From positions 434,001 to 498,000 of the forward strand of contig JAHBWW010000002.1 in the NCBI GenBank assembly GCA_019636795.1: 64,000 bases of DNA, in the 5' to 3' direction. Numbering within the stretch: the stretch's first letter is position 1; the number at the start of each line of letters is the position of its first letter. The translations under genes were made by a program, and so were the position numbers. A model generated the notes under the pieces. That model ran no database searches and had not been told where the DNA came from. It was given only the letters and a program-made list of their open reading frames with translations. The stretch is from Phycisphaeraceae bacterium. Its GTDB lineage: Bacteria; Planctomycetota; Phycisphaerae; Phycisphaerales; UBA1924. Below, one piece after another: positions 3,819 to 41,803 of this stretch.

Positions 3819-3836
3819 AAGACTCCTGCTGTGTAA

Positions 3837-3867
3837 ACACTACCCCCCCCCCCCCACCCGGTGTCAA
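3837..3867 (-). promoter_or_regulatory. Sigma70-type promoter with poly-G spacer
   Basis: Read on the minus strand there is a perfect -35 hexamer TTGACA (3862-3867), then a 19-base spacer that includes 13 consecutive G, then a weak -10 TAGTGT (3837-3842). The predicted transcript starts near 3830, just upstream of the SD and ATG of the pseudopilin gene. A spacer two bases shorter would be optimal, so slippage in the G run could switch promoter strength. Confidence 0.55.
3843..3855. repeat. 13-base homopolymer (C on plus strand, G on minus)
   Basis: Thirteen identical bases in a row, by far the longest single-base run seen in the window. It lies 25-37 bases upstream of the pseudopilin start, between the candidate -35 and -10 boxes. 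Homopolymers of this length are prone both to replication slippage and to sequencing error, so the exact count is uncertain. Confidence 0.9.
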
Positions 3868-3970
3868 GTCCTCAAAAGTGGGGCGTTCTTTGTGACAACG
3901 CGGCGAAGGTGTGAGACGACCCCCTCGCTTGCGCTTGGGGCTCTTTGTTGTTGTGATTAGTTGGGCGCGC

Positions 3971-4010
3971 AAAAAACCCCCGGGCTGTGGTGGGAGGCGT
4001 GCCCGGGGGT
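3971..4010 (-). terminator. Intrinsic terminator of nrdJ
   Basis: On the minus strand a perfect 10-base-pair stem (ACCCCCGGGC / GCCCGGGGGT, 3976-3985 with 4001-4010) encloses a 15-base loop and is followed by a run of six T (3971-3976). It lies about 100 bases after the nrdJ stop codon. Confidence 0.9.
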
Positions 4011-4107
4011 GGGAGGCGTGGTGTCAGGAGCGTGCGTTGGGAGGCGCATTGGGTGGCTCCCGACACCAACAGTGGGAACAGGTTGTAAGATTCAGGTCAT
4101 CAATCCA

Positions 4108-7659
<3,552 letters not shown>

Positions 7660-17260: not shown

Positions 17261-19744
17261 TCAGGCGTCGTCTTCGTCTTCGTTGCGGATGGCGGGGAGA
17301 GCGGCTGGGGGAGTTGAACGCTCGATGCGCTTGGGCTGAAGCGGCGGGAGATCGACGTCGAACTTGACTTCGGCCTGCGGTCCTCGGCTGAGGAGGCGCA
17401 GATCGGCAAAGGTCGGATCGGTCATGATGCGTGGGGTGATGAAGATGTAGAGGACGGAGTTGGCTGTGTCCTTGTTGGTGTCGCGGAAGAGGTGGCCGAT
17501 GAGCGGAATATCGCCCAGCAGCGGGATTTTGACGATCGTGTTGCGATTGTTCTTGACGGTGATGCCGCCAACGACGATGGTGGCGTCGGTGGGAATCGTG
17601 GCGATGCCTGAGACGGAGTTGTCGGTCTTGGGTGGTGGGATGCCGTCGCCGCTTGACGAGGCGGTGAAGGATGAAAGGGTGACGGCGTAGTCGAGACGGA
17701 TATAACCGGCTTCGGAGATGGTGGGCGTGACGGAGAGCGTTGTGCCCGCGTCTTCATAGCCGCCAAAGGAGGTGATGGTCGTGTTGTCGCCCTGGCTTGT
17801 GGTGGTGGTGGGCTGCTGATCGATGGCGATGATCTCGGCCTGTTCGTTGTCGTTGACGAGAAGTTGGGGCGAAGAGAGAATGCGCGAGTCGGTGTTGGTC
17901 TGAATGGCGTTGATGACGAAGGGGACCGAGTCGGAGCGGATGAGCGCGCTGGTGAAGCCTGCCAGGTTGGGCGCGACGTTGCGTGGATCCTGGAAGGTGG
18001 CGCCGGGTGTGGTGAGGCCGAAGTTGGTCTGGGCCTGGTACTGGCCTGCGGAGAGTTGGCCCTCGAAGGCAAGGCGGAAGTCCTTGGTATCGGAGACGCT
18101 GACGATGGTGGCTTCGATGTAGACTTGCGGCCTGCGGAGGTCGAGTCGGCCGACGAGTTTGCGAAACTCGTCCTGTTGCTTCTTGGGCGCCTTGACGATG
18201 ACCTGATTGTTGGCTTCGTCGGCGATGACAAAGACGCGTGTGGGGTCGGGGGCGAAGCCAGCGTCGTCGCCGACGGCGCGTGTGAACTGCGTCTGCGCGA
18301 AGTTCTGTTGAAATCCCTGCTGTGCGCCGGGCAGGAGGGGCGATGTGCCGGTGAGCGACTGGCCGCTGATGAGGCCCTGGATGATCTCGGCGACGGCGAC
18401 GGCCTGTGCGTTGGCGAGTTTGTAATATTCGAGTGTGATGGCGTCTTCGCCGACATCGAGGAGTTTGATCCAGTCGGCCAGTTCGGCCTGCTGGGCGATT
18501 GTGCCGTAGTAAATGATGGACTGGCGGCGTTCATCGACGATCATGACGGGTCCGCCGACGGCGGTCGTAGTCTGCTGTGTCTGCTGGCCCTGCTGCTGGG
18601 GGAACTGGACGCGGAACTGATTGCTCAGGTCGGTGGTCGGATCGGTGAGCACGATGACCTCGCCCAGAGCGCGCTGCTTGGCGAGGTCGGCGATCTGTCG
18701 GACGGCGGTGCCGGCGAAGTACTGGCGTCGCTCCATGCGGTTGGGCACGTCGATGACGCGGATGACGTCGATGACCTGGGAGAGTTCGGTGTCGTTGCCT
18801 CGGAAGATGAGGGCGTTGTCCTGGGCATCGACGGTGAGGCGATCGGCGATGTTGTCGAGCGCGCTGCCCGAGGCGCCGGCCTGTTGTTGCTGCTGTTGCT
18901 GCTGCTGGGCGCGGCCTTGAGGCTGCTGGGGCGTGACGCGTGTCGTCTGGCCTGTGCCTGAGCCTGCGAGCTGGATGACGCGTTCGCGCGCGACGGGGGC
19001 GGCGATGTGGGCCAGTTCGATGCGAGTGAAGTGGGCCTGGAGATACCGATCGCGCAGTTCTGCGATGAGCGTCTCGACGCGGCGGATATCGCGCGAGGTG
19101 CCGGTCATCACGATCACGCCCAGTTCGTCGATGTAGGCGATCGTCGAGGCGGCCGGAGCGCCTCCGCCGGCTGCGCGCGGGAGGACTGCGTTGAGCGCGT
19201 CGGTCAGGCCGCTGGGGCGCAGGCCCGCGGTGTCGATGACCTTGCTGGTGGCGCGTTCGGTGGAGAAGTTGATGGGTGTTTCGGCGCGTGCCTGGACGGT
19301 GTAGATGCCGCTGGCGTCCTGGGTGATCGAGGCGTCGTACTGCTCGAGCAGGGCGTCGAGGAGGTCGAGCAGGTCGCGTTTGGGCACCTCGACAGGCGCG
19401 TTGAACATGACCGAGCCGGTGAGCGTGCCCTTGATGACGATGTTGATGCCCAGCGTGCTGCCGACATAATCGACGAGCGTGGTCAGTTCGACGGGCTCGC
19501 TGAAGGCGGCGAAGGAGACGGCGTCGGAGGCCGGATCGCCCGGGGGCAGGGCGGGCTCATCGGCGGCGGCGGCTTCCTGGACTCCGTTGTCGGTCGCAGC
19601 GGGCTGGGCGAGCGCGCGGGGGGTGACGCGGATGCCCTGGGTTTCGTTCTGGCGGGCGCTGGCCAGGGGCGTGGCTGCTCCGCAGCAGGCGACGAGCGCA
19701 ATAACCTTGAGGTGTCGGGCGAGAAGCGGGGAATCGTGCAGCAC
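17261..19744 (-). CDS. gspD: Type II secretion outer-membrane secretin GspD
   Basis: GTG at 19744 is chosen because GGAGGT precedes it by nine bases and a signal peptide begins at once (LKVIALVACCGAATPLASA). The longest frame uses TTG at 19801. The product (about 827 residues) has N domains with repeated KKAKGE-like segments, a poly-Gln stretch of about nine Gln encoded by a CAG/CAA-rich tract near 18885-18910, and the secretin core: FVINAIQTNTDSRILSSPQLLVNDN, VTPTISEAGYI and IPLLGDIPLIGHLFR near the C terminus. It forms the outer-membrane channel, confirming a diderm envelope. Divergent from the BtuF-like gene with 67 bases between starts. Confidence 0.92.
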   Translation of the reverse strand: MLHDSPLLARHLKVIALVACCGAATPLASARQNETQGIRVTPRALAQPAATDNGVQEAAAADEPALPPGDPASDAVSFAAFSEPVELTTLVDYVGSTLGINIVIKGTLTGSVMFNAPVEVPKRDLLDLLDALLEQYDASITQDASGIYTVQARAETPINFSTERATSKVIDTAGLRPSGLTDALNAVLPRAAGGGAPAASTIAYIDELGVIVMTGTSRDIRRVETLIAELRDRYLQAHFTRIELAHIAAPVARERVIQLAGSGTGQTTRVTPQQPQGRAQQQQQQQQQAGASGSALDNIADRLTVDAQDNALIFRGNDTELSQVIDVIRVIDVPNRMERRQYFAGTAVRQIADLAKQRALGEVIVLTDPTTDLSNQFRVQFPQQQGQQTQQTTTAVGGPVMIVDERRQSIIYYGTIAQQAELADWIKLLDVGEDAITLEYYKLANAQAVAVAEIIQGLISGQSLTGTSPLLPGAQQGFQQNFAQTQFTRAVGDDAGFAPDPTRVFVIADEANNQVIVKAPKKQQDEFRKLVGRLDLRRPQVYIEATIVSVSDTKDFRLAFEGQLSAGQYQAQTNFGLTTPGATFQDPRNVAPNLAGFTSALIRSDSVPFVINAIQTNTDSRILSSPQLLVNDNEQAEIIAIDQQPTTTTSQGDNTTITSFGGYEDAGTTLSVTPTISEAGYIRLDYAVTLSSFTASSSGDGIPPPKTDNSVSGIATIPTDATIVVGGITVKNNRNTIVKIPLLGDIPLIGHLFRDTNKDTANSVLYIFITPRIMTDPTFADLRLLSRGPQAEVKFDVDLPPLQPKRIERSTPPAALPAIRNEDEDDA

Positions 19745-29634: not shown

Positions 29635-29777
29635 CGCGCTGCTGAGCATCGAAGCTCAGGTCTACTTGCGGATATGTCACCAGCATGTCACGCGCAACGT
29701 TGCATGTCAGTGACAACCGCATAGCCGATGAATGTGGTATCAATGAGCGTGGGATTGATCCCCGAAAGGAGTTTTCA

Positions 29778-31433
29778 ATGTTCGGAGGTATGCGCGGTAC
29801 TTTCTTGCTTGCGGCGTGTGCGGGGCTTGCATCGGCCGATCTGCCGGTGCGCGAGGTGACGATCTTCAAGGATGGGCATGCGATGGTGCTCCGGCAGGGC
29901 TTGATGCCGGTGAACGCGCAAGGGGATGTTGAGATTGAAGAGTTGCCCAGACCAATCCTCGGGACATTCTGGGCCTACTCGGCGACATCGGGGGTGAAGA
30001 TGTCGAGCGTTAAGGTCGGCAAGGTCGACGAGATAAACGAAATCGATCCGCAGAACCTGCATCATCTGATCAGGCTCGCGGTCGGTACGGATGTCACACT
30101 CGTGCTCCATGACGGCGGCATCGCACGCGGGACGCTCAAGCGAGTCTCCGGCGCAATGGCGATGCTCAGCGGCGAGTCGGCAGTGGCGATCAATCTGGCG
30201 GATGTTCGGCGTGCAGAGTTTCATGATGAATCAATACTCAACCGCAAGGACGAGCAGACCTTCACCAAGGACGTGATGACGATCGACCTTTCGTGGGAAG
30301 GCCATGCACCTGCCAACGAAGCCGAAGTAGGACTCATGTATATCGAAAGAGGACTGCGCTGGATTCCGTCATACCGCGTGACCCTGACGAGCGATGATCG
30401 TGCGATCATCGAGTTGAGCGCCACGCTGGTCAACGAACTGATGGATCTGGACAACGTCAAGGCGAATCTGGTGATCGGTGTCCCGAGTTTCATGTTCGAG
30501 CACACACTCGATCCGATGTCGCTTCAGGAGCAGGTTGCGCAGCTCGGCCAGTATTTTGACAGAGCGTCGTCGATGACCGGCGCGGCGCTGAGCAATGCTC
30601 TCATGTCGCAGACAGCCCGCATGAGCGACAGTCGCGGCTATCGAGACAACAACTCGATGGGCCAGCAAGGGAGCAATGTCGAGGTTGGAAGCACAGATCA
30701 GGCGGAGGATCTGTACATCTTCAACGTCAGCAATGTGACGCTCAAGAGGGGCGAGCGGCTGTTCGTGCCTCTGGCTGTAGCGGAAGTGCCGTATGAATCG
30801 GTGTACACACTCACGCTTCCTATCGCGCCGCCATCGGACATGTGGCAAAACTTCGGCACCGATCAGCAGCGCGAGATCGCGCGCATGCTCGACCGCCCCA
30901 CTGCCAGGCATGTGCTGCGCCTGACCAACGCTTCGGAGCATCCGTTCACCACTGCGCCAGCCCTGATTATCCGCGACGGACAGCCGCTGGCGCAGGGCAT
31001 GCTGCGCTACACCGCCAGGACCGCCCGCGTCGATCTCGAAGTCACCAGCGCAGTCGACATCCGCGTCGAATCGAGTGAGCGAGAAGCCCAGCGCGAGCAT
31101 GACGGGCTTCGGTGGAACGGCAACACGTATGCCCGCGTCGAACTCACAGGCAGTGCGAATCTGACGAACTACAAGACCAAGGCGGTGAAGATCGAAGTCC
31201 GCAAGTTCGTCCTCGGCAAGGCGACCGAAGCCAATGCGAACGGCACGATCGAGGGGATCAACTTCTTCACTGGTATGGACTGGGACCAGCCCTCGTTTGC
31301 ATGGTGGCGCTGGTATGGATGGCCCTGGTGGTGGAGCCGACTCAACAGCGCTTCACGCATCGACTGGACTGTTGAACTTGAGCCCGGAGAGTCGGTCAAC
31401 CTGGAGTGCGCGTGGCAGTACTTCTGGAACTGA
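29778..31433 (+). CDS. Secreted DUF4139-like protein
   Basis: ATG at 29778 has AAAGGAG eight bases upstream and a signal peptide (GTFLLAACAGLASA). The protein of 551 residues begins VREVTIFKDGHAMVLRQGLMPV, like the N domain of DUF4139/mucoidy-inhibitor A proteins, and carries EVGLMYIERGLRWIPSYRVTL, the equivalent of their conserved GWxPxYxL motif. A C-terminal Trp-rich patch (FAWWRWYGWPWWW) is unusual. The function of the family is not established, though members are cell-surface associated. No partner genes nearby. Confidence 0.72.
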   Translation: MFGGMRGTFLLAACAGLASADLPVREVTIFKDGHAMVLRQGLMPVNAQGDVEIEELPRPILGTFWAYSATSGVKMSSVKVGKVDEINEIDPQNLHHLIRLAVGTDVTLVLHDGGIARGTLKRVSGAMAMLSGESAVAINLADVRRAEFHDESILNRKDEQTFTKDVMTIDLSWEGHAPANEAEVGLMYIERGLRWIPSYRVTLTSDDRAIIELSATLVNELMDLDNVKANLVIGVPSFMFEHTLDPMSLQEQVAQLGQYFDRASSMTGAALSNALMSQTARMSDSRGYRDNNSMGQQGSNVEVGSTDQAEDLYIFNVSNVTLKRGERLFVPLAVAEVPYESVYTLTLPIAPPSDMWQNFGTDQQREIARMLDRPTARHVLRLTNASEHPFTTAPALIIRDGQPLAQGMLRYTARTARVDLEVTSAVDIRVESSEREAQREHDGLRWNGNTYARVELTGSANLTNYKTKAVKIEVRKFVLGKATEANANGTIEGINFFTGMDWDQPSFAWWRWYGWPWWWSRLNSASRIDWTVELEPGESVNLECAWQYFWN

Positions 31434-31523: not shown

Positions 31524-34500
31524 TCACCGCTTCAACGCTTCAGCAAGTTCACGGACCCATGCGGCGCTCGGCTGGGCGTAGGGGCGGAACTTCTCGAATG
31601 TTCCGCTCTCTTCGCTGTAGAGCAGTGCGCGGGCCTGCCCGAGGCGCCCCGCGGCTGGGGAGTCAATCAGCGCGGTCGAGTCGTTGGCGTTCATCTGGAA
31701 GAGGACGCGAGCGTCGAACTCGCCGATTGTCTGGCGGTCGAACGCGCGTTCGAGGTTGCCGATTGTGTCGGCCCAAAGTATCGTGTGGATGCCCAGGCCC
31801 GGGCCCTCGCGCACGATCGACGCGAGTTGCTTGTCGGCACTTGGCTTTTCATCAGGATCGGCAGAGAACGAGAAGTTCTCTTCCTTTCGTCGAAGCCCAC
31901 GGAAGCGGTGCAGGCCGTGGAGGATCAGCACAATCGTGTCCTCATCGGTCTGATTTTGCGTCTCGCGCGTCGTGAGTTCGCTGGCGATCTCGTCAATCAT
32001 TGTGTCGGCATCGCGCCAGGTGCCGATGCGCGAGTGATGCGGCAGTGCCTGCGCGAGCGATGCGAGCACGCCATGCCGCGGGTCATCGGCGGGGGTGCCA
32101 TCCAAGATGAAGAACCTCGCTCCTTTGCGTGGAAACTGTGCTGCCAGAGAAACAAGGGCGGCGCAGTTGAGCGCCAGTGCTTCATCGTCCTGCTGACCGA
32201 CGATGAGGCAGTTTGATCCGGTATGGCGGCGGAACGATGCAGCGGTCGGCTCCTTGATGGCGACCGGTTCGCCGAACCAGGCACGGGCGACGGTGGGCAT
32301 TTCGCGCGTCGGGCTCTTGATCGCGCGTGCAAGCTCGTGGTTGTCTTCGATGCGTGAAGGCACGTTGCCTTCGAAAACAATCTGAGGCTCGGGTGGTTGG
32401 TAGGCGTCGTATTCGACTCGTTTGCGGACGAGATCGAGAGCGTGGTCGCGTACTGAATCTGGCAGCCAGGCAATTTGGAAGGGGCTGTTGCCCTCGATCA
32501 TGCCATTGGCATCGTTGTAGATTGCTTCGCCCGGGCGCGCGAGCAATCGGGCGGCGGCGTTGTCTTCAGACAGGATCAGATACGAATCCGTCTCAGAGCA
32601 TTGCAGAGCGATGCGCACGGCCATCTGCCCGACAGTGCTGCGAGCCAGCGAGTAGGCACCGCTGAGCGTCTGCGAACCGAGCAGCACATGCATGCCAAAC
32701 GCGCGGCCCTGTCGCACGAGTCGATCGAGAAGCAGTGCGGCCTCCTGTGCGATCTTGTCGTCCTCGACAAAGAACTCCTGAAACTCGTCGATGATGAGAA
32801 GGGTGCGTGGCATATGCACATCAGGCTGGCGCTCGCGAAAGCCAGCGATGTCCTGTGCGCCAACTTCGCGATACAGATCGCCCCGGCGCTTGAGTTCGGT
32901 ATCCAGCTTGTGCAGCACACTCAGGCCAAACTCGCGATCCGACTCGACAGCCACTGCCCGTGCGTGCGCGAGCCGGTGTGTCGCATAAGTCTTGAACTCG
33001 ACGCCTTTCTTGAAGTCCACGAGGTAGAACTCGACCTCGTGTGGCGAATACCACATCGCGAGCGACGCCACAAGCACATGCAGCATCGTTGACTTGCCTG
33101 AACCGGTCTTGCCCGCGATCAGAACATGCTGGCTGGTGCCTCGCCCGAGCGTGAGATATTGCAGTTTCGTTGCGCCAGCGCGGCCGAGCGGGACACGCAG
33201 CTCCTTTGCGCAGGATTCCTGCCACATCGCTTCGGGCGCTGGAGTAATTTTCTGAAACGGCACCTCGACGCGGCCCGCATCCTTTGACAATTCTCCGACA
33301 CGTCGCACCAGACGCGACAGAAACTCGTCATCGGGCGGCGCATCGAGTGCGAGCGGTAATTGATTCAGCGGTTCGACCGCCATGCGCAGGCCGGCATCAG
33401 TTTCGACGACCGTCAACGCGTGTCGCTCAAGATCTTCGAGCGTCAGTCCTGCGGGGAGTTTGGCTGCTGGATCTGTCAGGATCAGCGTGTAGACCCCGCA
33501 ACGAGCGCCCGACTCAAGAATACTCTTGAGGCGCTGGGCAGACGCTTCGGTGATCGACGCTGGATAATCGGCAATGACGAGAAAGCGATAGGGTTCAGCA
33601 ATCTCGCCCGCACTCTCGTTGTACGATTCGATGCTCTCGAACTCATTGCGCAGATACTTCTGAATGACCTTTTCCATGTGCTCGGTCAGATCGGTCAGAC
33701 GCTTTTCGATGTGCTTGGGGTCGGTCCAGATGCGGTTGGCAACGAGTGCTTCGTCAAAGTCGGCCAGATGCATAAAGCCCGCGAAACTCTGCCCGAGGCC
33801 TACGGGATCCATGATCGTGAAGCGTACCTTTCCGGGCGGAATTGATGTCAGGAGCCGCAGCATGACGTTCTGAAGCGTCGCAATGGCAGCGGGCCGATGC
33901 TCGGGGCCGCACTCGATCAGCAGCGAACACCGGCCCGGAAAGTCGAGCATTGCGGGCAGCGACATACGCGCTGGTACTTCGTGCGTGAGCGATGGGTCGT
34001 CGGGCAATGCGCCTTCGAAATCAGCCATGTTGACCAGCATCGATCCGAACTGGATGGCGGGCGCGGCTGCAGCCGGCGGGTGGTACGCCTGCCACATCGA
34101 ACTCTGCCAGGCAGGAAAGAGCATCTCGGCCCGATCCTGCATGTCAATCGCAGCATCGTTGATGCGCGTCATGCGCTCGTGCCAGATCCGCGTCAGCTGT
34201 TCGCGCTGATTGGCAGCCTCCTGTTCGATCTCTGCGAGACGGCTGGCCCGTATCGCCTCGGTTCGTTCGGCCACATCTGCGAGCGTCTGACGAATCTGCG
34301 CGAGTCGCTCGTCAGCCTCGCGCTCGATGCGCCCAATGTCCTCTTCCCGCTTGAGCCGCTGCTGTTCGGATTGGGCCAGATACCCTTTATCGAGCGCCTG
34401 CACGTCGGTCTCGCGCCGCTTCTCGATCTCGCGCACCGCACGGCGATGGACAAGTTGCGCACTCTCCGTATCACGCTTCTTGGTTGCCGCCAGATGCTGC

Positions 34501-35447
34501 AACTCTGCCCCGCACTGCGACTCGGCGATATCGAGGATCGCGTCTGCAAGGCGTCGCGCCTTGCTTGTGTGCCGAGCGATTGGATCGGCTGCTGCACGCA
34601 ACTGACCAAGCCCCATCACCCGCAGCGGCAGGATCAGCACAACGAACACCAACCCGAATGCCACCGCTCCGATCGCTGCCGACGGAGCGAGCCCGAGTGA
34701 AACCATCGAGTGCCCCCACGCACCAAGCACTCCACCACCGATGAGCACCAGAGGCAGAAGAAACAGCATGCCATGAAACGTCTTGAGAATCCGCGCTCGT
34801 TGCAGGGACACCAGCCCCTGCTGCGCCGCCTGAAGATGCTCCTCGACCTGCGTGAACGCATCCTGCGGGTCTTGCGCATTGGGTTGGCTCGTCGCGTCGG
34901 CCCCAACATCTGTCACGAGTTTGAACTGCCCCTGAGCCAGGTGTGCAGCATGCGTTTCGATCTCGGTTGCCTGTTTGCGGGCAGCGTCGGCGGCTCGCTT
35001 GATGCGTTCAAAAGCCTGCTTCGGCTTGGCGTGCGCCGCGTCGAAGACGGTCTCGGCAAGCCAGAGCGATTCCTTCATGGTTTCGTCGGCTGCACGCGAA
35101 TCGTGATTGATCGCCTCGAGCAGATCGACACGCTGCGTCTGATAGACCCGCTCGGCCTCACGAAACGCTGCTTCGAACTTTTCTTCAATGCGGGCGAGCG
35201 ACCTCTCTCGTTTCGAAGTCAGTTCTGTGTCGGCTGTATCGTGCGCTTCCTGCGCGAGCGATCGTTCATGCCGGTACGCCCGCTCGGCTTCATCAAGATC
35301 TGCAGCCCGGTTCGCTTCGAGCGAGGCCTGTGCCTGGGCCCGCTCGCGGGTCGCCAATGCAAGCAGCTCGACAAGCGCGCACTCGCGCTGGGTGAATGTA
35401 CCCGCCATCAAGTCGCTGGCGTCCGATCGCACAAGTTCGCTGGTCAT
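31524..35447 (-). CDS. EssC/EccC-type three-domain FtsK ATPase with coiled-coil membrane anchor
   Basis: 1307 residues: coiled coil 20-215; two membrane helices about 226-247 and 252-278; second coiled coil 290-445; then three tandem FtsK-type domains. Domain 1 (about 500-660) lacks a Walker A (ECGPEHRPA). Domain 2 (about 760-960) is intact, with GKTGSGKST at 779-787, YLVDFKKGVEF and Walker B TLLIIDEFQ near 882-890. Domain 3 (about 1070-1275) is degenerate (GQQDDEALAL). Three stacked domains are the hallmark of type VII secretion motors; in mycobacterial EccC the first domain is the active one, so this layout differs. It lies six bases after a WXG100-size gene. It does not look like a chromosome-segregation FtsK (no gamma domain). 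Likely exports the neighbouring small proteins across the inner membrane. Confidence 0.85.
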   Translation of the reverse strand: MTSELVRSDASDLMAGTFTQRECALVELLALATRERAQAQASLEANRAADLDEAERAYRHERSLAQEAHDTADTELTSKRERSLARIEEKFEAAFREAERVYQTQRVDLLEAINHDSRAADETMKESLWLAETVFDAAHAKPKQAFERIKRAADAARKQATEIETHAAHLAQGQFKLVTDVGADATSQPNAQDPQDAFTQVEEHLQAAQQGLVSLQRARILKTFHGMLFLLPLVLIGGGVLGAWGHSMVSLGLAPSAAIGAVAFGLVFVVLILPLRVMGLGQLRAAADPIARHTSKARRLADAILDIAESQCGAELQHLAATKKRDTESAQLVHRRAVREIEKRRETDVQALDKGYLAQSEQQRLKREEDIGRIEREADERLAQIRQTLADVAERTEAIRASRLAEIEQEAANQREQLTRIWHERMTRINDAAIDMQDRAEMLFPAWQSSMWQAYHPPAAAAPAIQFGSMLVNMADFEGALPDDPSLTHEVPARMSLPAMLDFPGRCSLLIECGPEHRPAAIATLQNVMLRLLTSIPPGKVRFTIMDPVGLGQSFAGFMHLADFDEALVANRIWTDPKHIEKRLTDLTEHMEKVIQKYLRNEFESIESYNESAGEIAEPYRFLVIADYPASITEASAQRLKSILESGARCGVYTLILTDPAAKLPAGLTLEDLERHALTVVETDAGLRMAVEPLNQLPLALDAPPDDEFLSRLVRRVGELSKDAGRVEVPFQKITPAPEAMWQESCAKELRVPLGRAGATKLQYLTLGRGTSQHVLIAGKTGSGKSTMLHVLVASLAMWYSPHEVEFYLVDFKKGVEFKTYATHRLAHARAVAVESDREFGLSVLHKLDTELKRRGDLYREVGAQDIAGFRERQPDVHMPRTLLIIDEFQEFFVEDDKIAQEAALLLDRLVRQGRAFGMHVLLGSQTLSGAYSLARSTVGQMAVRIALQCSETDSYLILSEDNAAARLLARPGEAIYNDANGMIEGNSPFQIAWLPDSVRDHALDLVRKRVEYDAYQPPEPQIVFEGNVPSRIEDNHELARAIKSPTREMPTVARAWFGEPVAIKEPTAASFRRHTGSNCLIVGQQDDEALALNCAALVSLAAQFPRKGARFFILDGTPADDPRHGVLASLAQALPHHSRIGTWRDADTMIDEIASELTTRETQNQTDEDTIVLILHGLHRFRGLRRKEENFSFSADPDEKPSADKQLASIVREGPGLGIHTILWADTIGNLERAFDRQTIGEFDARVLFQMNANDSTALIDSPAAGRLGQARALLYSEESGTFEKFRPYAQPSAAWVRELAEALKR

Positions 35448-35453
35448 GGGTGG

Positions 35454-35669
35454 TTAGTCGCCGCACGCTCGACGGGCACTGGCCGAAGCGTCAGAAAGTT
35501 TCTCCATCGCACCGATGGTGGACCGAACTTTCGGCCCGAGGGGTTCAATATACTTCTTCTCATAGCCAGCTGCTGCATTGTCGTTCCAGCTTTCGCGCGC
35601 ACGCGCCCATGCCACCATCAGTTGCTGAGCCGCATCCGCAAGCATCGCCCGCCCGACTGTCGAACTCAT
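35454..35669 (-). CDS. WXG100-like small helical protein, second of pair
   Basis: 71 residues, all helical, with ARARESWNDNAAAGYEKKY in the middle: a Trp-x-Asp turn (Trp28) instead of Trp-x-Gly between two helices, as expected of a WXG100 hairpin. Shorter than the usual 100. The C-terminal half (MEKLSDASASARRACGD) carries no YxxxD/E export motif. It overlaps the coiled-coil gene by ATGA and precedes the FtsK-type gene by six bases. Probable cargo or dimer partner of the other WXG100-like protein. Confidence 0.6.
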   Translation of the reverse strand: MSSTVGRAMLADAAQQLMVAWARARESWNDNAAAGYEKKYIEPLGPKVRSTIGAMEKLSDASASARRACGD

Positions 35670-36724
35670 GCCTCACTCTCCGTGACCCGAGCATATGCCA
35701 GTGTGTCGTTCGGTGCTGTGATCGCAGTGATCGCCGCTCCTTCAACGACAATCAGCGTCCCGCGGTGCAGCAGCAACGCCCGGGCGAGATCAGGCCGGTG
35801 CTCGATCAGATCCGCAAGGCGGACTTTCTCCAGTTCACGCCGATGAGGCTCTGGCTCGACGCCAGGGGTAAATGGTCCAATGTACCACCCGCTGTCCCAT
35901 TCTTCCGCAGGTTCACACCGCTCCAGGTACACGCTGCTCTGCGTCATCGCGCCGGGCGCACAGGTCGCCCAGAGACCTGCGATATCGTCCTTTGGCGGAT
36001 GCAACGACTCGATCGCCTCGAGTTGCCCTTGAGCAGCGACGCGAGGCAGATTTGTCCGCGTCCATAACTCGTCAGGCTCAATTTCCTCTGCCCGGCGTCG
36101 GCGCCCGGCGCTGGGCGTTGCTTTGCGAAAGGCAGCGTAAGGCGATGACGAAGCCGACCCGCCCGCGTCTGGTTGCGCGAAACTCTCGGTCGCGCCCGGT
36201 GTTGCACTCGCCCCGGTCCCGAGTCCATCCTCGTGCACCGACGGAGCGACGAGCGCGACGTACTGTTCGAGGGCGGCTGCCATTTGATCTAGATCGAACA
36301 CTGCCCGATCTTCGAGCTTTGCCAGTTGCGTCGAGAGGCCTTGCGACATGCCCTTGTACTGCATGTGCTCCTTTTCGAGATCGCGTAGCCAACGCCTGGT
36401 ATGCTCTGCTTTCTGCTGGGCTTCCTCAACCCGCTGCTTGGCGCGATCCAGCGCCTTGCGCTCTTCGACCGCAGAGCGAGGATCGCCCGTCGCCGACCTC
36501 TGCTTGTTGAAGAGTTCTGTCTTGCACCGGACAATTTCATCGGATCGCAGGCGGATCTCCCGCTTCCAGTAGGCTTGACGGTCGGACCGCAGCCACTCGA
36601 GGGTCCGCAGAGCCTCGGTCTCGGCTGCTGTCAATGCCGCCCGCGCTTCTTCGATGAACTTGATCAGCGCAGGACGAAACTCGCGCAGTGCCGCGATGGA
36701 TGTGACCTTTGCGCCTTGGTTCAT
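35666..36724 (-). CDS. Coiled-coil protein with Imm33/DUF2185-like C-terminal domain
   Basis: 352 residues. Residues about 10-170 are a long charged coiled coil (REFRPALIKFIEEARAAL, ALDRAKQRVEEAQQKAEHTRR). A Pro/Ser/Gly-rich linker follows (170-215). Residues about 245-350 contain SVYLERCEPAEEWDSGWYIG and EKVRLADLIEHRPDLARALL, which resemble the DSGW and NPDL/GT blocks of DUF2185 (Imm33) domains. No signal peptide or membrane helix. The gene begins six bases after the WXG100 gene and overlaps the second small one. It could be a chaperone, a secreted coiled-coil substrate or an immunity-type factor; the domain call is tentative. Confidence 0.55.
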   Translation of the reverse strand: MNQGAKVTSIAALREFRPALIKFIEEARAALTAAETEALRTLEWLRSDRQAYWKREIRLRSDEIVRCKTELFNKQRSATGDPRSAVEERKALDRAKQRVEEAQQKAEHTRRWLRDLEKEHMQYKGMSQGLSTQLAKLEDRAVFDLDQMAAALEQYVALVAPSVHEDGLGTGASATPGATESFAQPDAGGSASSSPYAAFRKATPSAGRRRRAEEIEPDELWTRTNLPRVAAQGQLEAIESLHPPKDDIAGLWATCAPGAMTQSSVYLERCEPAEEWDSGWYIGPFTPGVEPEPHRRELEKVRLADLIEHRPDLARALLLHRGTLIVVEGAAITAITAPNDTLAYARVTESEA

Positions 36725-36729
36725 CGCGT

Positions 36730-37002
36730 CTACCTCTGCCGCAGATACTCTTCGATCCGATCCGCCTTGCGCAGGAGAAATGGAATGTGCTGCTCGGATG
36801 CCTGCGTAAATCGGGTCAAGGTTCGCAGCGTGTGTTCGAACTCATTGATGAACTTGGCGTGCTCCTGGTCGCGCCAGGTCTGGCTCAGCGCCTGCATCTG
36901 CCCGTTGAGCGCATTCATCTGGGTCGAGAGATTCGCATTGAACCGCTTGAGTGATTGGGCAAAACGACGCAGTTCTTCAGGATCGACAACAGCCTTGGCC
37001 AT
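36730..37002 (-). CDS. WXG100-family protein
   Basis: 90 residues forming two amphipathic helices separated by QTWRDQ (Trp43), close to the WXG turn at the expected midpoint. The first helix (EELRRFAQSLKRFNANLSTQMNALNGQM) and second (FINEFEHTLRTLTRFTQASEQHIPFLLRKADRIEEYLRQ) have the length and heptad pattern of EsxA/EsxB. SD GAGGAG precedes the ATG by seven bases. First gene of the four-gene cluster. WXG100 proteins are exported dimers or export signals in type VII systems. Confidence 0.75.
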   Translation of the reverse strand: MAKAVVDPEELRRFAQSLKRFNANLSTQMNALNGQMQALSQTWRDQEHAKFINEFEHTLRTLTRFTQASEQHIPFLLRKADRIEEYLRQR

Positions 37003-37080: not shown

Positions 37081-38139
37081 TCAATCAAATACTGGACCGC
37101 GCGGGCTGTCGGTCGCGGGTTGCGGGGATGGCGCAGCCTTCGGCTCGGTCAACTCAGACATGCGCCGCGACAGGTTCGTCGCTGCCCAGCTGGGAATCAT
37201 GAATTCTCGACCCTTGAATCGCGCTTGAAGCGTTTCCAACTGGTCGGGCACGATGTCTGCACCAACAGAGTTGGCATCAAAAACCGCCCACTTTTCTCCC
37301 TCGTAGTCGTAGATCTGGATCGACACCACCAGGCCATCAAACATCTGGAATACCACCTCGATCGGCGAGCCAAACAGCTTGCCCGCCGCAGGGCGAACAT
37401 CGTCAAAGTTGAGACTGGTCAGCGCCCGGCTCATCGGGTCGGCGATTCCCGCGCTGCGCAGCTCGAAACCATCGGGAACCGGCGCGACATCGAAGTTCGG
37501 CTGCGCAGTGTCAGCCCGCGAAAGCCCGATCTCATCGCCATCAGGGTGAATGATGTTCAGTGACTGCACGCGTGAGCCGTCTATTCGCGTCAGTTCGCGC
37601 ACAATCCAGTTGATCGGGTCGGTTGTGACCTCGACCGTCGCAGGCACCAGCCACGAACGGGAGTCGGCGGGCAGCCGCACATACCGCTGCTCGGCGGTGC
37701 CCTCGCGCGTCGCGATCCCGACAATGATGGACGCGAGCTTCTCGCCGCTGGCTGAGGTCACTGTCACGAGCGTGCCTTGCCCCCCGGACCCGGGCTCGGC
37801 CACGCCGATGCGTGCATACATCTCGGGATTCGATGTTTTCTCATCGAGCGCCTTCATCTCGGAGAGAGCCACCAGTAATGGGCGAATTTTGTCCATTCGC
37901 GCCGGTAGCGAAGTCTTGGAAGGGATCACCCAGCCTTCGCCGCTGCGCTCAAGCGTCAACGTTCCGGAATCTGATTTGAGTTCGATCGCAGCAGCATCAT
38001 TGATGCGCTGGGCAAGTATCGGCAGCAATGTCTGCGTCGAAGGCTCTGCGCTTTTACGCGGCACCACCAGCACGCCGACAATTATCAGCCCGACCAATCC
38101 CAGACACACAATCAAGAGTCGCATCTGTCGCTGCTTCAT
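37081..38139 (-). CDS. DUF4340-domain protein of a Gld-type ABC system
   Basis: 352 residues: one N-terminal membrane helix (LLIVCLGLVGLIIVGVLVV), then a DUF4340 repeat pattern (IELKSDSGTLTLERSGEGWVIPS, a KIRPLLVALSEMKALDEKTSNPEMYARIGVAEP block), typical of proteins encoded beside GldG-like ABC transporters. Its start overlaps the gldG-like stop by ATGA. It is 78 bases upstream of the WXG100 gene on the same strand. Proteins of this family probably sit on the periplasmic face and contact the transporter; the substrate is unknown. Confidence 0.85.
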   Translation of the reverse strand: MKQRQMRLLIVCLGLVGLIIVGVLVVPRKSAEPSTQTLLPILAQRINDAAAIELKSDSGTLTLERSGEGWVIPSKTSLPARMDKIRPLLVALSEMKALDEKTSNPEMYARIGVAEPGSGGQGTLVTVTSASGEKLASIIVGIATREGTAEQRYVRLPADSRSWLVPATVEVTTDPINWIVRELTRIDGSRVQSLNIIHPDGDEIGLSRADTAQPNFDVAPVPDGFELRSAGIADPMSRALTSLNFDDVRPAAGKLFGSPIEVVFQMFDGLVVSIQIYDYEGEKWAVFDANSVGADIVPDQLETLQARFKGREFMIPSWAATNLSRRMSELTEPKAAPSPQPATDSPRGPVFD

Positions 38140-40049
38140 GTTGTGCCCTCCGACTCGCGCATCTTCCGACGGTCACGCGTCCTGCGGGAGGCCCGATATG
38201 AGCCAAGCCCCAACGCCAAGAGCGCCACCATTGCTGGCAGCAGCGCGATGTTGATGAGTTTGAGTGTTGTGCCAAGCTTGTTGACGTCCTTGGTCAAGTC
38301 GTGTTGCACACGCCGAAGGTTGCGCCGTGTCTCGGATCGCCGCTCCTGCAAGCGCTGAATCTCAGCACGAACTTCGTCTGAGAGAATCGCGGACTGATCA
38401 TCCCCTGACGCACGAAGCAGTTCATTGATGCGCGCCTCAGTGAGTCGCAGTTCTTCGGAGTACTTTTCCTCTTCTGCGAGGTACTCGGTTTGTGCCGTCT
38501 TCTGCAGTTCCTCGACGCGTTTGAACGGCCGGAACGCGGTCGAGCTCGCCCGAATCGAGATCAGATCGCTCGACCCCGCAAGATTCTCCACCGCATTGAG
38601 CATCAGAGCACCGTTATCCGCGAATCGCTGGTAAATCACATTGTTGGCAAATCGCATCGGCTGCACCCACGCCGCATCGAAGAACATATCGGCATCGGCA
38701 AAGATGATGACGTTGATGTCGGTCTTCGATGCGCTCAGATGCTCAGCGCCCGTCGGAGCCGCTGCCATACCGGCCGGTCGACCTTCGGCAAACGCCGACC
38801 GCACAGGCCCAGTCACGCGCGCCGCCAGCACCAGCGACTCGCCCGAAGGCACAAAGTCGCGCATGAGTTCCTGCGGACTCGGGAACTTGACGCGCTCAAC
38901 GCTGATCCGCTGCGAATCCGTACTCGACACGATCAGCGGCGTCACCGTCAACGAACTGTCTGCCTGCCGCTCTATCACGCCGCCAGCCTGATACGTCAGC
39001 ATCGACAATCCCGCCGTCACCACGTCCTCATCCGACCTCGCCGCGTTCGAGAGTCGCATGTATGGCAGATACCCGATCGGAACTCCTGTTGTTCCCGGAG
39101 CCGCCACCGAAATCGCATACTGCGCATCGCCCGCCACGATGCCGGGTGCCAGATCCACCCCCCACGCCCGACCGAGCCGTCCAAGCGAACTCGAACGATC
39201 AGCCGTGTACGCCTGCAACTGATCATTCGGAGCCGTCGGAGGTACATATGTCTCGCAGTGCGGGTCGATCGCAAAGACAGCGCGCCCGTTCCTCAGAATG
39301 TACTGATCAATCGCGTACCACACCGGCGTTGTGAGCGATTGCGGATGAATCACCACCAGCACGTCAATCGACCCCATCTCCGCAATGTTTGACTCATCGA
39401 TCATCACCACGTCGTACTGCCGCGACAGTTCCTGATGGATCACCCATGGCTGCTGCATCTGCTGGCGCGGCTGGAACTGGCTCGGCTCAACACCCGCGAT
39501 CGGCAGGCTGCTGACGATCCCCACGCGGGTCCTGGCCTGGCTCGAGAGCAGATGGATGCGCTGGGCAATTTCGTAGTTCAGGAATCGTTCCTGCCGCGGA
39601 TCGAAGAACGCAATGACCTCGCGACCATCGGTCGAGTTGGTCAGCACCAACCCGAAGAACAGCCTCCGAGTCCCTACGGGTTGGCCAATCAGCCCCAACG
39701 CAGCCGCATCGTCCTCTTCATCAGAAAACGGATCAGGCTCGATGATCTCGAGTTGAAGTTTCCCGCGGGAAGCCGATGCGAACTCCGCCAGAGTGTCCTG
39801 CACACGTCTTGCATACATCGTCAGCGACGGATCACCAGACGCCAGATCGCGTGTGAAGTAGAACCTCGCCCGGATCGGTTCGTCGATGCTGCTGGCGATG
39901 CTCCTCGCGCCAGCCGGGAGCGTGTAGAGCCTGTCACTCGTCAGATCCAGCCTCACATTGCGCAGGCCGGCTGACACAAGCATATTGATCGCAAAGAACA
40001 GAACCACGCAAACCACAATCGCGATGATCGGAAAAAATCTGTTGTGCAT
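38136..40049 (-). CDS. GldG-like ABC-associated membrane protein
   Basis: 637 residues with membrane helices at both ends (IIAIVVCVVLFFAINMLVS and LLPAMVALLALGLGSY). The start RNVRLDLTSDRLYTLPAGARSI is the diagnostic opening of GldG/ABC-type uncharacterised proteins, followed by a beta-rich periplasmic part and a coiled coil before the last helix (EEEKYSEELRLTEARINELL). In Bacteroidota GldFG supports gliding and protein export, but in planctomycetes the role is not known. It lies 18 bases after the permease gene. Confidence 0.9.
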   Translation of the reverse strand: MHNRFFPIIAIVVCVVLFFAINMLVSAGLRNVRLDLTSDRLYTLPAGARSIASSIDEPIRARFYFTRDLASGDPSLTMYARRVQDTLAEFASASRGKLQLEIIEPDPFSDEEDDAAALGLIGQPVGTRRLFFGLVLTNSTDGREVIAFFDPRQERFLNYEIAQRIHLLSSQARTRVGIVSSLPIAGVEPSQFQPRQQMQQPWVIHQELSRQYDVVMIDESNIAEMGSIDVLVVIHPQSLTTPVWYAIDQYILRNGRAVFAIDPHCETYVPPTAPNDQLQAYTADRSSSLGRLGRAWGVDLAPGIVAGDAQYAISVAAPGTTGVPIGYLPYMRLSNAARSDEDVVTAGLSMLTYQAGGVIERQADSSLTVTPLIVSSTDSQRISVERVKFPSPQELMRDFVPSGESLVLAARVTGPVRSAFAEGRPAGMAAAPTGAEHLSASKTDINVIIFADADMFFDAAWVQPMRFANNVIYQRFADNGALMLNAVENLAGSSDLISIRASSTAFRPFKRVEELQKTAQTEYLAEEEKYSEELRLTEARINELLRASGDDQSAILSDEVRAEIQRLQERRSETRRNLRRVQHDLTKDVNKLGTTLKLINIALLPAMVALLALGLGSYRASRRTRDRRKMRESEGTT

Positions 40050-40067
40050 CGTGTGCCCCCCGTCCTT

Positions 40068-40808
40068 TCATGAACCCTTGCGCCACTGGAGCATCATGCC
40101 ATTGGCAAACAACGCCAGCCCGATCAAACTCCCGAAGAAAACCACATCGCGCGCGTCGATCACGCCCTTGCTGATCGCGTCGAAATGGGTCAGCACGCTG
40201 AAGCTCGCGATTGCATCAACGATCGCCTGCGGCGCCCACCCGCTGAACAGATCCAGCACCGGATTCATCCCCGCCAGGAGCAGCGCAAAGCACGCGACCA
40301 CCGACACAATGAACGCGATGACCTGGCTCTTGGTCGCGGCCGAGATGCACGACCCCACCGCCAGGAATCCCCCCGCCATCACCAGACTTCCGAAATAGCT
40401 GGCCGCGATGACTCCGTTGTCCGGGTCGCCCAGAAAGTTGACCGTCATCCAGATCGGAAACGTCAGCGCCAGAGCAATGGCTGCGAACGCCCACGCAGCT
40501 GCAAACTTCCCTACCACCGCTCCCCACAGGCCGATCGGAAGCGTCATGAGCAGTTCCACCGTACCGCTGCGATGTTCCTCAGCCCACAATCTCATCGAAA
40601 TCGCCGGGATCAGAAAAAGATACAGCCACGGATGAAACATGAAAAACGAAATCAGGTCGGCCTGCCCCTCGATATAGAACCTGCCGAACTGAGCGCTGAA
40701 CGTAAAGATCCCCGCGAGAACCAGAAAGATCACGATGAAGACATACGCCACAGGGGTGATGAAATACCCTGCCAGTTCACGCTTGAAAACAGCAAGCGCC
40801 CCCGTCAT
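40068..40808 (-). CDS. ABC-2 type permease (GldF-like)
   Basis: 246 residues with six hydrophobic helices. Typical ABC-2 features: FKRELAGYFITPVAYVFIVIF at the N terminus and MRLWAEEHRSGTVELLMTLPI after the second helix. It overlaps the ATPase gene by ATGA, so both are made together. With the GldG-like and DUF4340 proteins it forms a complete Gld-type transporter. Confidence 0.92.
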   Translation of the reverse strand: MTGALAVFKRELAGYFITPVAYVFIVIFLVLAGIFTFSAQFGRFYIEGQADLISFFMFHPWLYLFLIPAISMRLWAEEHRSGTVELLMTLPIGLWGAVVGKFAAAWAFAAIALALTFPIWMTVNFLGDPDNGVIAASYFGSLVMAGGFLAVGSCISAATKSQVIAFIVSVVACFALLLAGMNPVLDLFSGWAPQAIVDAIASFSVLTHFDAISKGVIDARDVVFFGSLIGLALFANGMMLQWRKGS

Positions 40809-41752
40809 GCTGCACCTCCCGTGGTGATTGTCCGAAAGACTTCATCCAGTCGCCCCGATTCGACACGAACCTCGATCACCCGCAGCGATCTGGCTATCGC
40901 CGCATCGCGCACATCACTGACAATCAGCTGTCCGCCCTTGGCATACACGCGGCAGCGCAACGACTCCTCCCCGCAATCGAGCGTCTCGACCCGCGCAACC
41001 TTGGGCAACTTTGCCAACAAATCCGCAAACCCCCCGACCGCACCTTCAACTCCTAGCGTCACGGCGTTGTGCATGGCCGACCGCGCCTGCAACACATTGG
41101 GCGTCTCATCCGCAACAACGCGCCCGCGCGCAATCACCACAGCACGGCTGCACACAGTCTCAACCTCCTCAAGAATGTGCGTCGACAAGACAATCACCTT
41201 TCGAGCGCCGCTCGACGCCATGTCCCGAATCAACTGACGCACTTCGTGTTTCTGGTTCGGGTCGAGTCCATCCGTTGGCTCATCAAGAATCAGCACACGC
41301 GGGTCGTGCAGAATCGCCTGCGCAAGACCCACGCGCCGCTTGTAGCCCTTGCTCAAGGTCTCGATCGGCTGATGCATCACGCCTTCCAGATGCACCAGTG
41401 ACCTCACCTCGTCGATACGCTTGCGCCGTTCACGGGCTGGTATTTGCCGCACTTCAGCAATGAAATTCAGGAAGGCTGCAGGCGTCATGTCCGGATACGC
41501 TGGCGCGCCCTCGGGCAGGTATCCGATGCAACGCTTCAATGCCAGAGGTTCCTCCGTCGCGCTGTGCCCGCACACACTCACACTGCCTGATGTCGGGCTG
41601 AGAAAGCCCGTGATCATCTTCATCGTCGTGGACTTTCCCGCGCCATTGGGTCCTAGAAACCCCAATACTTCACCCGGCTCAACGCAAAGCGAGACGCCGT
41701 CCACCGCCACAATCGGGCCAAAGCGTTTGGACAACTTCGTCAGTTCAATCAT
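40805..41752 (-). CDS. ABC transporter ATPase (GldA/CcmA-like)
   Basis: ATG at 41752 has GGAG eight bases upstream; a TTG six bases earlier would add two residues. 315 residues with GPNGAGKSTTMKMI (Walker A), the GYLPEGAPAYPDMT Q-loop region, LSKGYKRRVGLAQAI (ABC signature) and VLILDEPTDGLDP (Walker B). The C-terminal 90 residues are an extra regulatory domain common in the GldA/multidrug group. It drives the permease encoded next. Its start lies 51 bases downstream of the epimerase stop. Confidence 0.95.
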   Translation of the reverse strand: MIELTKLSKRFGPIVAVDGVSLCVEPGEVLGFLGPNGAGKSTTMKMITGFLSPTSGSVSVCGHSATEEPLALKRCIGYLPEGAPAYPDMTPAAFLNFIAEVRQIPARERRKRIDEVRSLVHLEGVMHQPIETLSKGYKRRVGLAQAILHDPRVLILDEPTDGLDPNQKHEVRQLIRDMASSGARKVIVLSTHILEEVETVCSRAVVIARGRVVADETPNVLQARSAMHNAVTLGVEGAVGGFADLLAKLPKVARVETLDCGEESLRCRVYAKGGQLIVSDVRDAAIARSLRVIEVRVESGRLDEVFRTITTGGAA

Positions 41753-41803
41753 GCACAATTCTCCATTCCGTCGCGCCGCCCATCGCCCGCTGGCATTTCA
41801 CCA

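What the first reader, a model, noticed from the sequence alone, without database searches (positions are those of the whole stretch)
31524..37002. Minimal type VII-like secretion locus in a diderm planctomycete
Four minus-strand genes with gaps of 6, -4 and 6 bases encode a WXG100 protein, a coiled-coil protein, a second small Trp-x-Asp helical protein and a three-domain EssC-like ATPase. This is the core of a type VII system but without EccB, D, E, EsaA or a mycosin, and the same window has a secretin, so the cell has an outer membrane. How cargo would cross two membranes is unexplained, and such systems are little described outside Gram-positive bacteria.
Basis: partly seen in the sequence, partly recalled or inferred. 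Interest (0 to 1): 0.78.

Follow-up and report, generated by a model that had tools for sequence, protein, structure and literature searches.

The report
Toxin-free, membrane-anchored WXG100 export module
Many planctomycetes, bacteria with two membranes, carry a four-gene cassette related to the type VII secretion core of Gram-positive bacteria; here it has a likely membrane anchor and no toxin, which makes it a small test case for export across two membranes.

Summary
The four genes are real: a WXG100 protein over its curated cut-off, an alpha-helical hairpin protein with an Imm33-like tail (P0003), a second Trp-x-Asp hairpin, and a three-domain EccC/EssC-fold ATPase with only the middle domain intact. 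Among 61 related genomes WXG100 and P0003 occur in the same 28; the ATPase occurs in 27 of these and in one other; both mismatches lie at contig ends. In six planctomycete genomes the ATPase stands apart from its partners, yet P0003 is kept. The kind is not new: a 2012 footnote mentions planctomycete 'solo WXG' genes with such an ATPase, and papers of 2016 and 2024 describe Helicobacter and TerY-P/CoCoNuT versions. Not met in the papers seen: planctomycete ATPases have a predicted transmembrane hairpin (69 of 76; 0 of 16 in other phyla), and none of 70 planctomycete P0003 proteins carries the long, partly nuclease-like tails of all five homologs from other phyla. Best reading: a pared-down, inner-membrane-anchored type VII-like exporter whose cargo is the WXG100/hairpin complex itself. 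An intracellular membrane-bound stress or defence complex remains possible. How anything would cross the outer membrane is open.

The parts
36730..37002 (-). P0004, WXG100 protein, 90 aa, Trp-Arg-Asp in the turn (codons about 36868-36876)
   Evidence: Pfam WXG100 36.4 bits over cut-off 27.3; PDB best matches H. pylori HP0062 3fx7 E 1.3e-7 and 2gts; 90 aa in all 22 loci in which it was located, this window included
35666..36724 (-). P0003, 352 aa: long helical hairpin (residues 10-77 and 82-159) plus C-terminal Imm33-like alpha/beta domain
   Evidence: AlphaFold2 pLDDT 87.8, pTM 0.49; Pfam Imm33-like 28.9 bits over cut-off 27; hairpin domain found in 28 of 61 relatives, this genome included
36248..36697 (-). 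hairpin domain of P0003
   Evidence: model helices H10-77 and H82-159; family alignment A2
35732..35959 (-). Imm33-like domain of P0003 (residues 256-331)
   Evidence: 12 of 43 aligned members match it at E <= 0.01
35454..35669 (-). P0002, 71 aa, second WXG100-like protein with Trp-Asn-Asp; overlaps P0003 by 4 bases
   Evidence: the -4 overlap is found in 17 of 20 loci where both were located, this window included; W28 and D30 invariant in 20 aligned; 6 of 20 members match Pfam WXG100 at E <= 0.1
31524..35447 (-). P0001, EccC/EssC-like ATPase, 1307 aa: coiled coil, transmembrane hairpin, coiled coil, D1-D2-D3 (the coiled coils are read by eye)
34614..34778 (-). predicted transmembrane hairpin of P0001 (about residues 224-278), basic residues on both outer sides, so N-in/C-in is likely
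   Evidence: hydropathy
32400..33212 (-). D2, the only ATPase domain with Walker A (GKTGSGKS, 33090-33113) and Walker B (IIDEF)
   Evidence: one Walker A match each in the window's and 27 relatives' ATPases, some of them fragments; D1 and D3 P-loop positions degenerate in the 12 of 36 aligned rows shown

Best explanation
This is a pared-down, inner-membrane-anchored relative of the type VII secretion core. Shown: WXG100 (P0004), a second WxD protein (P0002), a long hairpin protein (P0003) and an EccC/EssC-fold ATPase (P0001) form one co-inherited unit. Inferred: P0004, P0002 and P0003 pack into an elongated helical pre-export complex, as LXG effectors do with the WXG100-like Lap1 and Lap2. P0001 forms a hexamer anchored by its two-helix hairpin, as EccC helices line the ESX-5 pore, and D2 drives the complex through the inner membrane. 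In other phyla the hairpin domain of P0003 carries further domains, some nuclease-like, that would ride along; in planctomycetes these are absent or replaced by an Imm33-like domain, so the hairpin complex itself would be the cargo, a periplasmic or surface component rather than a toxin. The step across the outer membrane is unknown and needs a partner not encoded in the cassette.
For: WXG100 over cut-off and P0003 are in the same 28 of 61 genomes, 27 of which also hold the ATPase (Fisher p 5e-15 for WXG100 against ATPase, ignoring shared ancestry). In six planctomycete genomes where no partner lies by the ATPase, P0003 persists elsewhere: G029 and G037 and four of four others checked. Full three-domain EccC fold. 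Two or more hydrophobic stretches ahead of the motor in 69 of 76 planctomycete ATPases and 0 of 16 others. In 3 of the 5 Chloroflexota loci with over 1.7 kb upstream (L077, L090, L106; not L074, L123), and beside the plasmid ATPases of Deinococcus and R. pseudokoreensis, a separate coiled-coil protein (by eye) with a membrane helix is encoded close by, which hints at anchoring in trans. P0003-like hairpin fused to a shared ParB-like domain in L090, L106, L133 and the Rhodococcus AH-ZY2 plasmid. Precedents: LXG-Lap1-Lap2 (PMC9600955, passages) and the EccC5 pore helices (PMC8232910, passages).
Against: No secretion data. The canonical YxxxD/E or FxxxD/E export arm is absent from the last 25 residues. 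No YukD, and no convincing EccB or EssB-like partner, was found, although in ESX-5 EccB and EccD scaffold the EccC helices. The relatives' ATPases outside planctomycetes lack the hairpin, and several of them sit in stress or defence islands; the authors of PMC11090510 therefore expect a different mechanism for theirs. D2 also resembles FtsK and HerA motors structurally, and FtsK motors rank first by Z. No outer-membrane component is linked. Hydropathy alone supports the hairpin.
Confidence: 0.5

Rival explanations
1. A membrane-tethered intracellular stress or defence complex, derived from the TerY-P/CoCoNuT-associated WXG100-FtsK module: the ATPase remodels or releases the hairpin complex inside the cell and nothing is exported.
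For: A like gene set lies in a TerY-P island on the Caballeronia plasmid, beside TerD genes on the Rhodococcus plasmid, and is described so in PMC11090510 and PMC4978471 (passages and one section). Relatives' ATPases lack the membrane hairpin. Imm33 domains are listed as immunity domains in PMC3482391 (passages).
Against: No TerD match in this genome at E <= 0.001; no TerY-P genes among the neighbouring ORFs scanned (6, 8) and no conserved neighbours in relatives; the planctomycete ATPase has a membrane hairpin and the nuclease-like tail is gone, which removes the obvious effector.
Confidence: 0.3
2. A complete type VII system whose other membrane parts are encoded elsewhere or are too diverged to see.
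For: Three-domain EccC fold, WXG100 protein with a second WxD protein, two predicted membrane helices. A weak YukC-like stretch exists on contig 1 (15.9 bits).
Against: YukD not found; the YukC match is far under its cut-off, and weak matches of this kind also ring in other control genomes such as E. coli; no conserved neighbours in relatives; NCBIfam EccC/EssC scores of 100-114 bits against cut-offs of 347-778.
Confidence: 0.1
3. A DNA translocation, conjugation or partition module.
For: FtsK_SpoIIIE family; FtsK motor structures rank top by Z; the FtsK-like coupling protein TcpA also matches.
Against: The genome has another, stronger FtsK match on contig 5; no relaxase or Par family was among the Pfam matches of the 14 neighbouring ORFs scanned; WXG100 partners are inherited with it; the three-ATPase EccC is the only match over all three domains in the Foldseek rows shown.
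Confidence: 0.05
4. A decaying remnant of a mobile toxin system kept without function.
For: Patchy: 28 of 61 relatives, 39 of 294 in the phylum at E <= 1e-50; the long tails of other phyla are absent; one P0003 match (G347) spans a TAG.
Against: D2 motifs intact, operon spacing and the 4-base overlap kept, WXG100 42-90% identical in 21 relatives' loci, 55% or more in 20, and a planctomycete-only side of the ATPase tree.
Confidence: 0.05

Closest known systems
'Solo WXG' genes with a three-domain YueA-like ATPase, middle domain active (PMC3482391, 2012, footnote 6, passages seen)
   Same: WXG100 plus ATPase with only the middle domain intact; planctomycetes named among the lineages; called mobile versions of T7SS
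   Different: The passages seen do not mention the hairpin protein P0003, the second WxD protein, the membrane hairpin or the lack of toxin; here the planctomycete ATPases fall on one side of the tree, so not simply mobile
[quoted passage not shown]
   Same: Coiled-coil N-terminus, three domains with D2 active, two WXG100 proteins, a coiled-coil protein in the same set
   Different: There the ATPase lacks transmembrane helices and the coiled-coil protein carries a D-ExK nuclease; here there is a predicted membrane hairpin, no nuclease and no TerY-P genes seen
Helicobacter HP0062-HP0066 type locus (PMC3397514 and PMC4978471, passages; plasmid pNHP190012_1)
   Same: WXG100-like protein (WRD turn in HP0062), FtsK/SpoIIIE ATPase; on the plasmid also a small protein just before the ATPase (by position)
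   Different: On the plasmid the slot holds a WHH/colicin-DNase protein plus an SMI1/KNR4-family gene, and no P0003 similarity was detected; the H. pylori locus itself was not fetched
T7SSb LXG toxin with Lap1 and Lap2 (PMC9600955, passages)
   Same: Long helical protein with two small WXG100-like partners and an EssC ATPase
   Different: No LXG match in Pfam, no FxxxD arm, no toxin domain
T7SSa EccC (4nh0; ESX-5, PMC8232910, passages)
   Same: Three-ATPase fold; two transmembrane helices before the motor
   Different: Long coiled coil before the helices, D1 without a P-loop, no EccD-type YukD domain found, EccB not found (no control)

Membership tests
WXG100 family (PF06013), P0004 | Score over the curated cut-off | tested here: met
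   36.4 bits, cut-off 27.3
WXG100 family (PF06013), P0004 | Trp-x-Gly in the turn | tested here: not met
   Trp-Arg-Asp; WxD in 70 of 70 family members collected by profile, 65 of them from planctomycete-side loci; one also has a WxG
WXG100 family, P0002 | Score over the curated cut-off | tested here: not met
   Window protein: WXG100_2 E 0.017 only; 6 of 20 family members match PF06013 at E <= 0.1; a match in the P0002 region of G054 scores 27.4 bits, just over
T7SS ATPase EccC/EssC | Three FtsK-type domains in the EccC arrangement | tested here: met
   Model aligned to 4nh0 over 968 columns, E 1.7e-33, TM-score 0.39 over the whole length
T7SS ATPase EccC/EssC | NCBIfam equivalog cut-offs (TIGR03924, TIGR03925, TIGR03928) | tested here: not met
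   114.4, 100.1 and 104.5 bits against 509, 347 and 778
T7SS ATPase EccC/EssC | Two transmembrane helices ahead of the motor | tested here: met
   Hydropathy only
Type VII secretion system (a or b) | EccD/YukD ubiquitin-like component | tested here: not met
   None in genome at E <= 0.1; control rang in B. subtilis
Type VII secretion system (a or b) | EccB or EssB/YukC | tested here: inconclusive
   EccB none but no control rang; YukC 15.9 bits against 27.4
Type VII secretion system (a or b) | EccE, EssA, EsaA, mycosin | not tested
   No search was run for these
Type VII secretion system (a or b) | C-terminal YxxxD/E export signal | tested here: not met
   0 of 70 WXG100 and 0 of 73 P0002 in the last 25 residues
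Type VII secretion system (a or b) | ATPase-dependent export of a WXG100 protein | not testable with these tools
   Needs fractionation of wild type and mutant
Solo WXG / three-domain ATPase module (PMC3482391, PMC11090510) | WXG100 gene with an ATPase of three domains, middle one active, N-terminal coiled coil | tested here: met
   the coiled coil is read by eye
CoCoNuT/TerY-P extension | TerY-P genes beside it; nuclease fused to the coiled-coil protein; ATPase without membrane helices | tested here: not met
   No TerY-P family among the 14 neighbouring ORFs scanned, no TerD in genome, Imm33-like tail instead of a nuclease, membrane hairpin

The most novel reading that the evidence does not exclude
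Planctomycetes turned a mobile toxin-delivery module into a resident, toxin-free export machine whose inner-membrane pore is made by the ATPase's own helical hairpins alone, without EccB/D/E. It would export a WxD-type hairpin complex to the periplasm or cell surface: a minimal diderm type VII pathway, with the membrane anchor supplied in cis here and in trans in some Chloroflexota.
Probability: 0.3. Interest if true: 0.8.

Novelty: new variant of a known kind. Interest (0 to 1): 0.5.

Why it matters
If it exports, it is a very small type VII-like machine (four genes) in a cell with an outer membrane, and would show that an EccC-type ATPase can suffice for the inner-membrane step. If it does not, it shows WXG100 proteins serving a motor inside the cell. 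Either way one deletion and one fractionation decide it.

Tried and rejected
DNA transfer or partition: rejected as main reading (rivals). A toxin in the window's P0003: none found; the C-terminal domain is Imm33-like. A dispersed toxin using the P0003 domain: the profile finds one copy in each of the 28 positive genomes. LXG membership of P0003: Pfam gave no LXG match and Foldseek gave no PDB match at E <= 0.001 for the long hairpin, so only the architecture resembles LXG-Lap1-Lap2. Homology of the Helicobacter HNH protein and of the Caballeronia 436-aa protein to P0003: not detected (Caballeronia E 0.12; Helicobacter not among the matches shown); they are compared by position only. The small proteins before the ATPase on those two plasmids are likewise placed by position (Helicobacter E 0.036). 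The ParB-like label of the shared C-terminal domain rests on weak matches (ParB_N E 0.08, parB_part E 0.0023, all under cut-off) and on the four being mutually alike; the nuclease labels for L074 and L123 rest on motifs read by eye, no family matched their tails. The idea that the coiled-coil/TM proteins of Chloroflexota are homologous to the N-terminus of P0001: the profile did not match them. Phage origin: of 59 phage records 20 were listed; 19 of these cover 16-27% of P0001 around D2 and one, an unannotated faecal scaffold, residues 493-1137. PADLOC: P0001 matched SspH, mad8 and HerA models at best over D2; P0003 and P0004 had one weak match each. A recent import: the cassette's G+C equals the window's, 61.2%.

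The ATPase tree used the quick method and 69 of the ATPase sequences held; long branches in it are unsure, and some rows (for example L132, L142, named Isosphaeraceae and Planctomycetaceae) sit among Phycisphaerae, so some transfer within the phylum or misnamed bins are likely. For the hydropathy comparison rows were dropped: sequences open at the 5' end, two with a short N-part (L071, Helicobacter), two without a Walker match (L086, Deinococcus); one row from a bacterium of unnamed phylum (L127, two stretches) was kept apart.


Full report
What is there. Four minus-strand genes run 36730-37002, 35666-36724, 35454-35669 and 31524-35447, with gaps of 5, -4 and 6 bases. They encode 90, 352, 71 and 1307 residues. 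The first is a WXG100 protein over the curated cut-off (36.4 against 27.3 bits) and the only such match in the genome at E <= 0.001. Its best solved relatives are H. pylori HP0062 (3fx7, E 1.3e-7; 2gts), ahead of the Gram-positive EsxB and EsxA entries. The third protein has the same Trp-x-Asp turn; on its own it is under the Pfam cut-offs, but 6 of 20 family members match WXG100 at E <= 0.1.

The ATPase. NCBIfam scores it with EccC and EssC (114.4, 104.5 bits) far above FtsK (29.9), yet far below the cut-offs for membership. The AlphaFold2 model of its last 861 residues (pLDDT 88.2) has three RecA-like domains; the best Foldseek match is the three-ATPase EccC 4nh0 (E 1.7e-33), while a second aligner ranks single-domain FtsK motors and EccC/EssC about equally (Z 28-31). 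Only D2 has Walker A and B; D1 and D3 have lost the P-loop. Ahead of D1 lie, by eye and by hydropathy, a coiled coil, a hydrophobic two-helix hairpin and a second coiled coil.

One co-inherited unit. Among 61 genomes (this one and 60 relatives) the ATPase is found in 28 (matches well beyond the general FtsK background), the P0003 domain in 28 and WXG100 over cut-off in 28 (three further genomes have WXG100 matches under the cut-off). The last two sets are identical. 27 genomes have all three and 32 have none over these limits. The two mismatches are G005, whose ATPase is cut by a contig end, and G018, whose P0003 frame runs to a contig end. Around the gene order WXG100-P0003-P0002-ATPase, flanking genes are not shared except among a few of the closest relatives. 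P0003 and P0002 overlap by 4 bases in 17 of the 20 loci where both were located. In G029 the trio lies on another contig than the ATPase, and in G037 about 180 kb away with a changed order. Four named loci of the genome-contig scan without any of the trio in the stretch held, on either strand (L078, L089, L099, L108), come from genomes that hold P0003 elsewhere, 4 of 4. So the link is likely functional and not mere neighbourhood.

Spread. At E <= 1e-50 the ATPase is in 39 of 294 sampled genomes of the phylum. A scan of named genomes gave relatives in Phycisphaerae, Gemmatales, Isosphaeraceae, Planctomycetaceae, Kuenenia, Chloroflexota, Actinomycetota and Pseudomonadota (best 80 of 498). Of 44 planctomycete-side loci with over 2.2 kb upstream (one, L127, from an unnamed bacterium), 38 show the strictly ordered quartet, 2 more (L096, L097) hold all four genes with an over-long ATPase ORF, 4 have none nearby. 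Of 12 such loci outside the phylum, 5 show it (four Chloroflexota and one betaproteobacterium); in the actinobacterial ones WXG100-like genes lie downstream of the ATPase instead. In the tree the 49 planctomycete-side rows lie on one side of a branch with full support.

What differs in planctomycetes. First, the membrane hairpin: two or more hydrophobic stretches in 69 of 76 planctomycete ATPases, one in 5, none in 2; outside the phylum none of 16 has two, 5 have one, 11 none. In the Chloroflexota loci L077, L090 and L106, and beside the plasmid ATPases of Deinococcus and Rhodococcus pseudokoreensis, a separate coiled-coil protein (by eye) with a membrane helix is encoded next to or near the ATPase, though not in L074 or L123. 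Second, P0003. Its conserved part is a hairpin of two helices of about 70 residues each. Of 75 homologs, 53 end within 100 residues of the hairpin, 14 carry a tail with a DSGW motif, and 8 have another long tail. Three of those 8 are planctomycete: L081 (over the Imm33-like cut-off), L109 and L083 (25.3 and 19.5 bits to Imm33-like, cut-off 27). So the 70 planctomycete-side proteins have no long tail or an Imm33-like one (12 of the 43 scanned match that family at E <= 0.01). The other five are the only rows from other phyla: L090, L106 and L133 share a ParB-like domain with the Rhodococcus AH-ZY2 plasmid protein (36-52% identity); L074 and L123 have tails that by eye look nuclease-like, without a family match. 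In the same position a Helicobacter plasmid has a WHH/colicin-type DNase (44.6 bits to WHH) followed by an SMI1/KNR4-family gene, and a Caballeronia plasmid has a 436-residue protein inside a TerY-P island; neither is detectably similar to P0003. Third, the turn motif is WxD in 70 of 70 WXG100 and 73 of 73 P0002 proteins collected (five and four of them from other phyla), and the export arm YxxxD/E is absent from the ends of all of them.

Prior art. PMC3482391 (passages) states in a table footnote that planctomycetes and others have solo WXG domains with a YueA-like ATPase of three domains, only the middle active, 'mobile versions of T7SS'. PMC11090510 (passages) describes the TerY-P/CoCoNuT version in detail, stresses that it lacks transmembrane domains, and cites Anantharaman 2012 (not held) for stand-alone cases. 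PMC4978471 (passages and section 17) treats WxG plus FtsK in H. pylori as a minimal type VII set, and PMC3397514 (passages) notes the WRD turn of HP0062. PMC3935865 (passages) found WXG100 almost only in Actinobacteria and Firmicutes, with some Chloroflexi; it harvested proteins with a central W-X-G, which would pass over WxD proteins like these. In the searches run and the passages seen I met no description of the membrane hairpin, of the toxin-free P0003, or of the co-inheritance in planctomycetes; subscription papers are mostly not held.

How it most likely works. By analogy with LXG-Lap1-Lap2 complexes (PMC9600955, passages) and with EccC helices lining the ESX-5 pore (PMC8232910, passages), I propose that P0004, P0002 and P0003 form an elongated helical bundle that is fed by D2 of a hexameric, membrane-anchored P0001 through its own hairpin helices. 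Component identity and co-inheritance are shown; the domain fold is predicted; complex formation, hexamer, pore and export are inferred. The outer membrane step is unexplained: seven secretins exist in the genome, one in this window at 17423-17908, but nothing links any of them to the cassette. The main rival is a membrane-bound intracellular stress or defence complex.

Scores. Observation confirmed; interpretation partly supported; a new variant of a known kind. Interest 0.5: specialists can know that the module exists, but a toxin-free, membrane-anchored and phylum-wide version in diderm bacteria is unexpected and easily tested.

Noticed in passing
window 37081-41758, minus strand: Upstream operon: ABC ATPase, ABC-2 permease, GldG-like ABC_transp_aux protein (171 bits) and DUF4340 protein; similar upstream genes are clustered with those of the close relative L031 but of few other loci.
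   Followed up: partly
window 29685-31433, plus strand: 582-aa protein with a Trp-rich stretch near its end, only a weak MuiA-like match; convergent with the ATPase gene.
   Followed up: no
window 17423-17908, minus strand: Secretin domain in an 847-residue frame; seven secretins in the genome, one in a frame of 4598 residues on contig 4.
   Followed up: no
L090:7496-8998 and L106:5353-9412: Between trio and ATPase in Chloroflexota: coiled-coil plus single membrane helix proteins whose C-terminal parts look by eye like a formylglycine-generating-enzyme domain (L090) and WD40 repeats (L106, 478-aa protein).
   Followed up: partly
L062:8489-13919: Rhodococcus plasmid ATPase whose N-terminus looks by eye like a TerD domain, followed by P0003-, P0002- and WXG100-like genes and near two genes annotated TerD family.
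   Followed up: partly
L060:8504-25326: Caballeronia plasmid island: vWA, WXG100, 436-aa protein, two small proteins, FtsK, CARF, vWA, PP2C, kinase, AAA, ParA-annotated protein.
   Followed up: partly
L065 (MT836827.1), 3555-5471: A faecal 'phage' scaffold of 10.4 kb encodes a stretch 27.7% identical to residues 493-1137 of the ATPase; may be a bacterial fragment.
   Followed up: no
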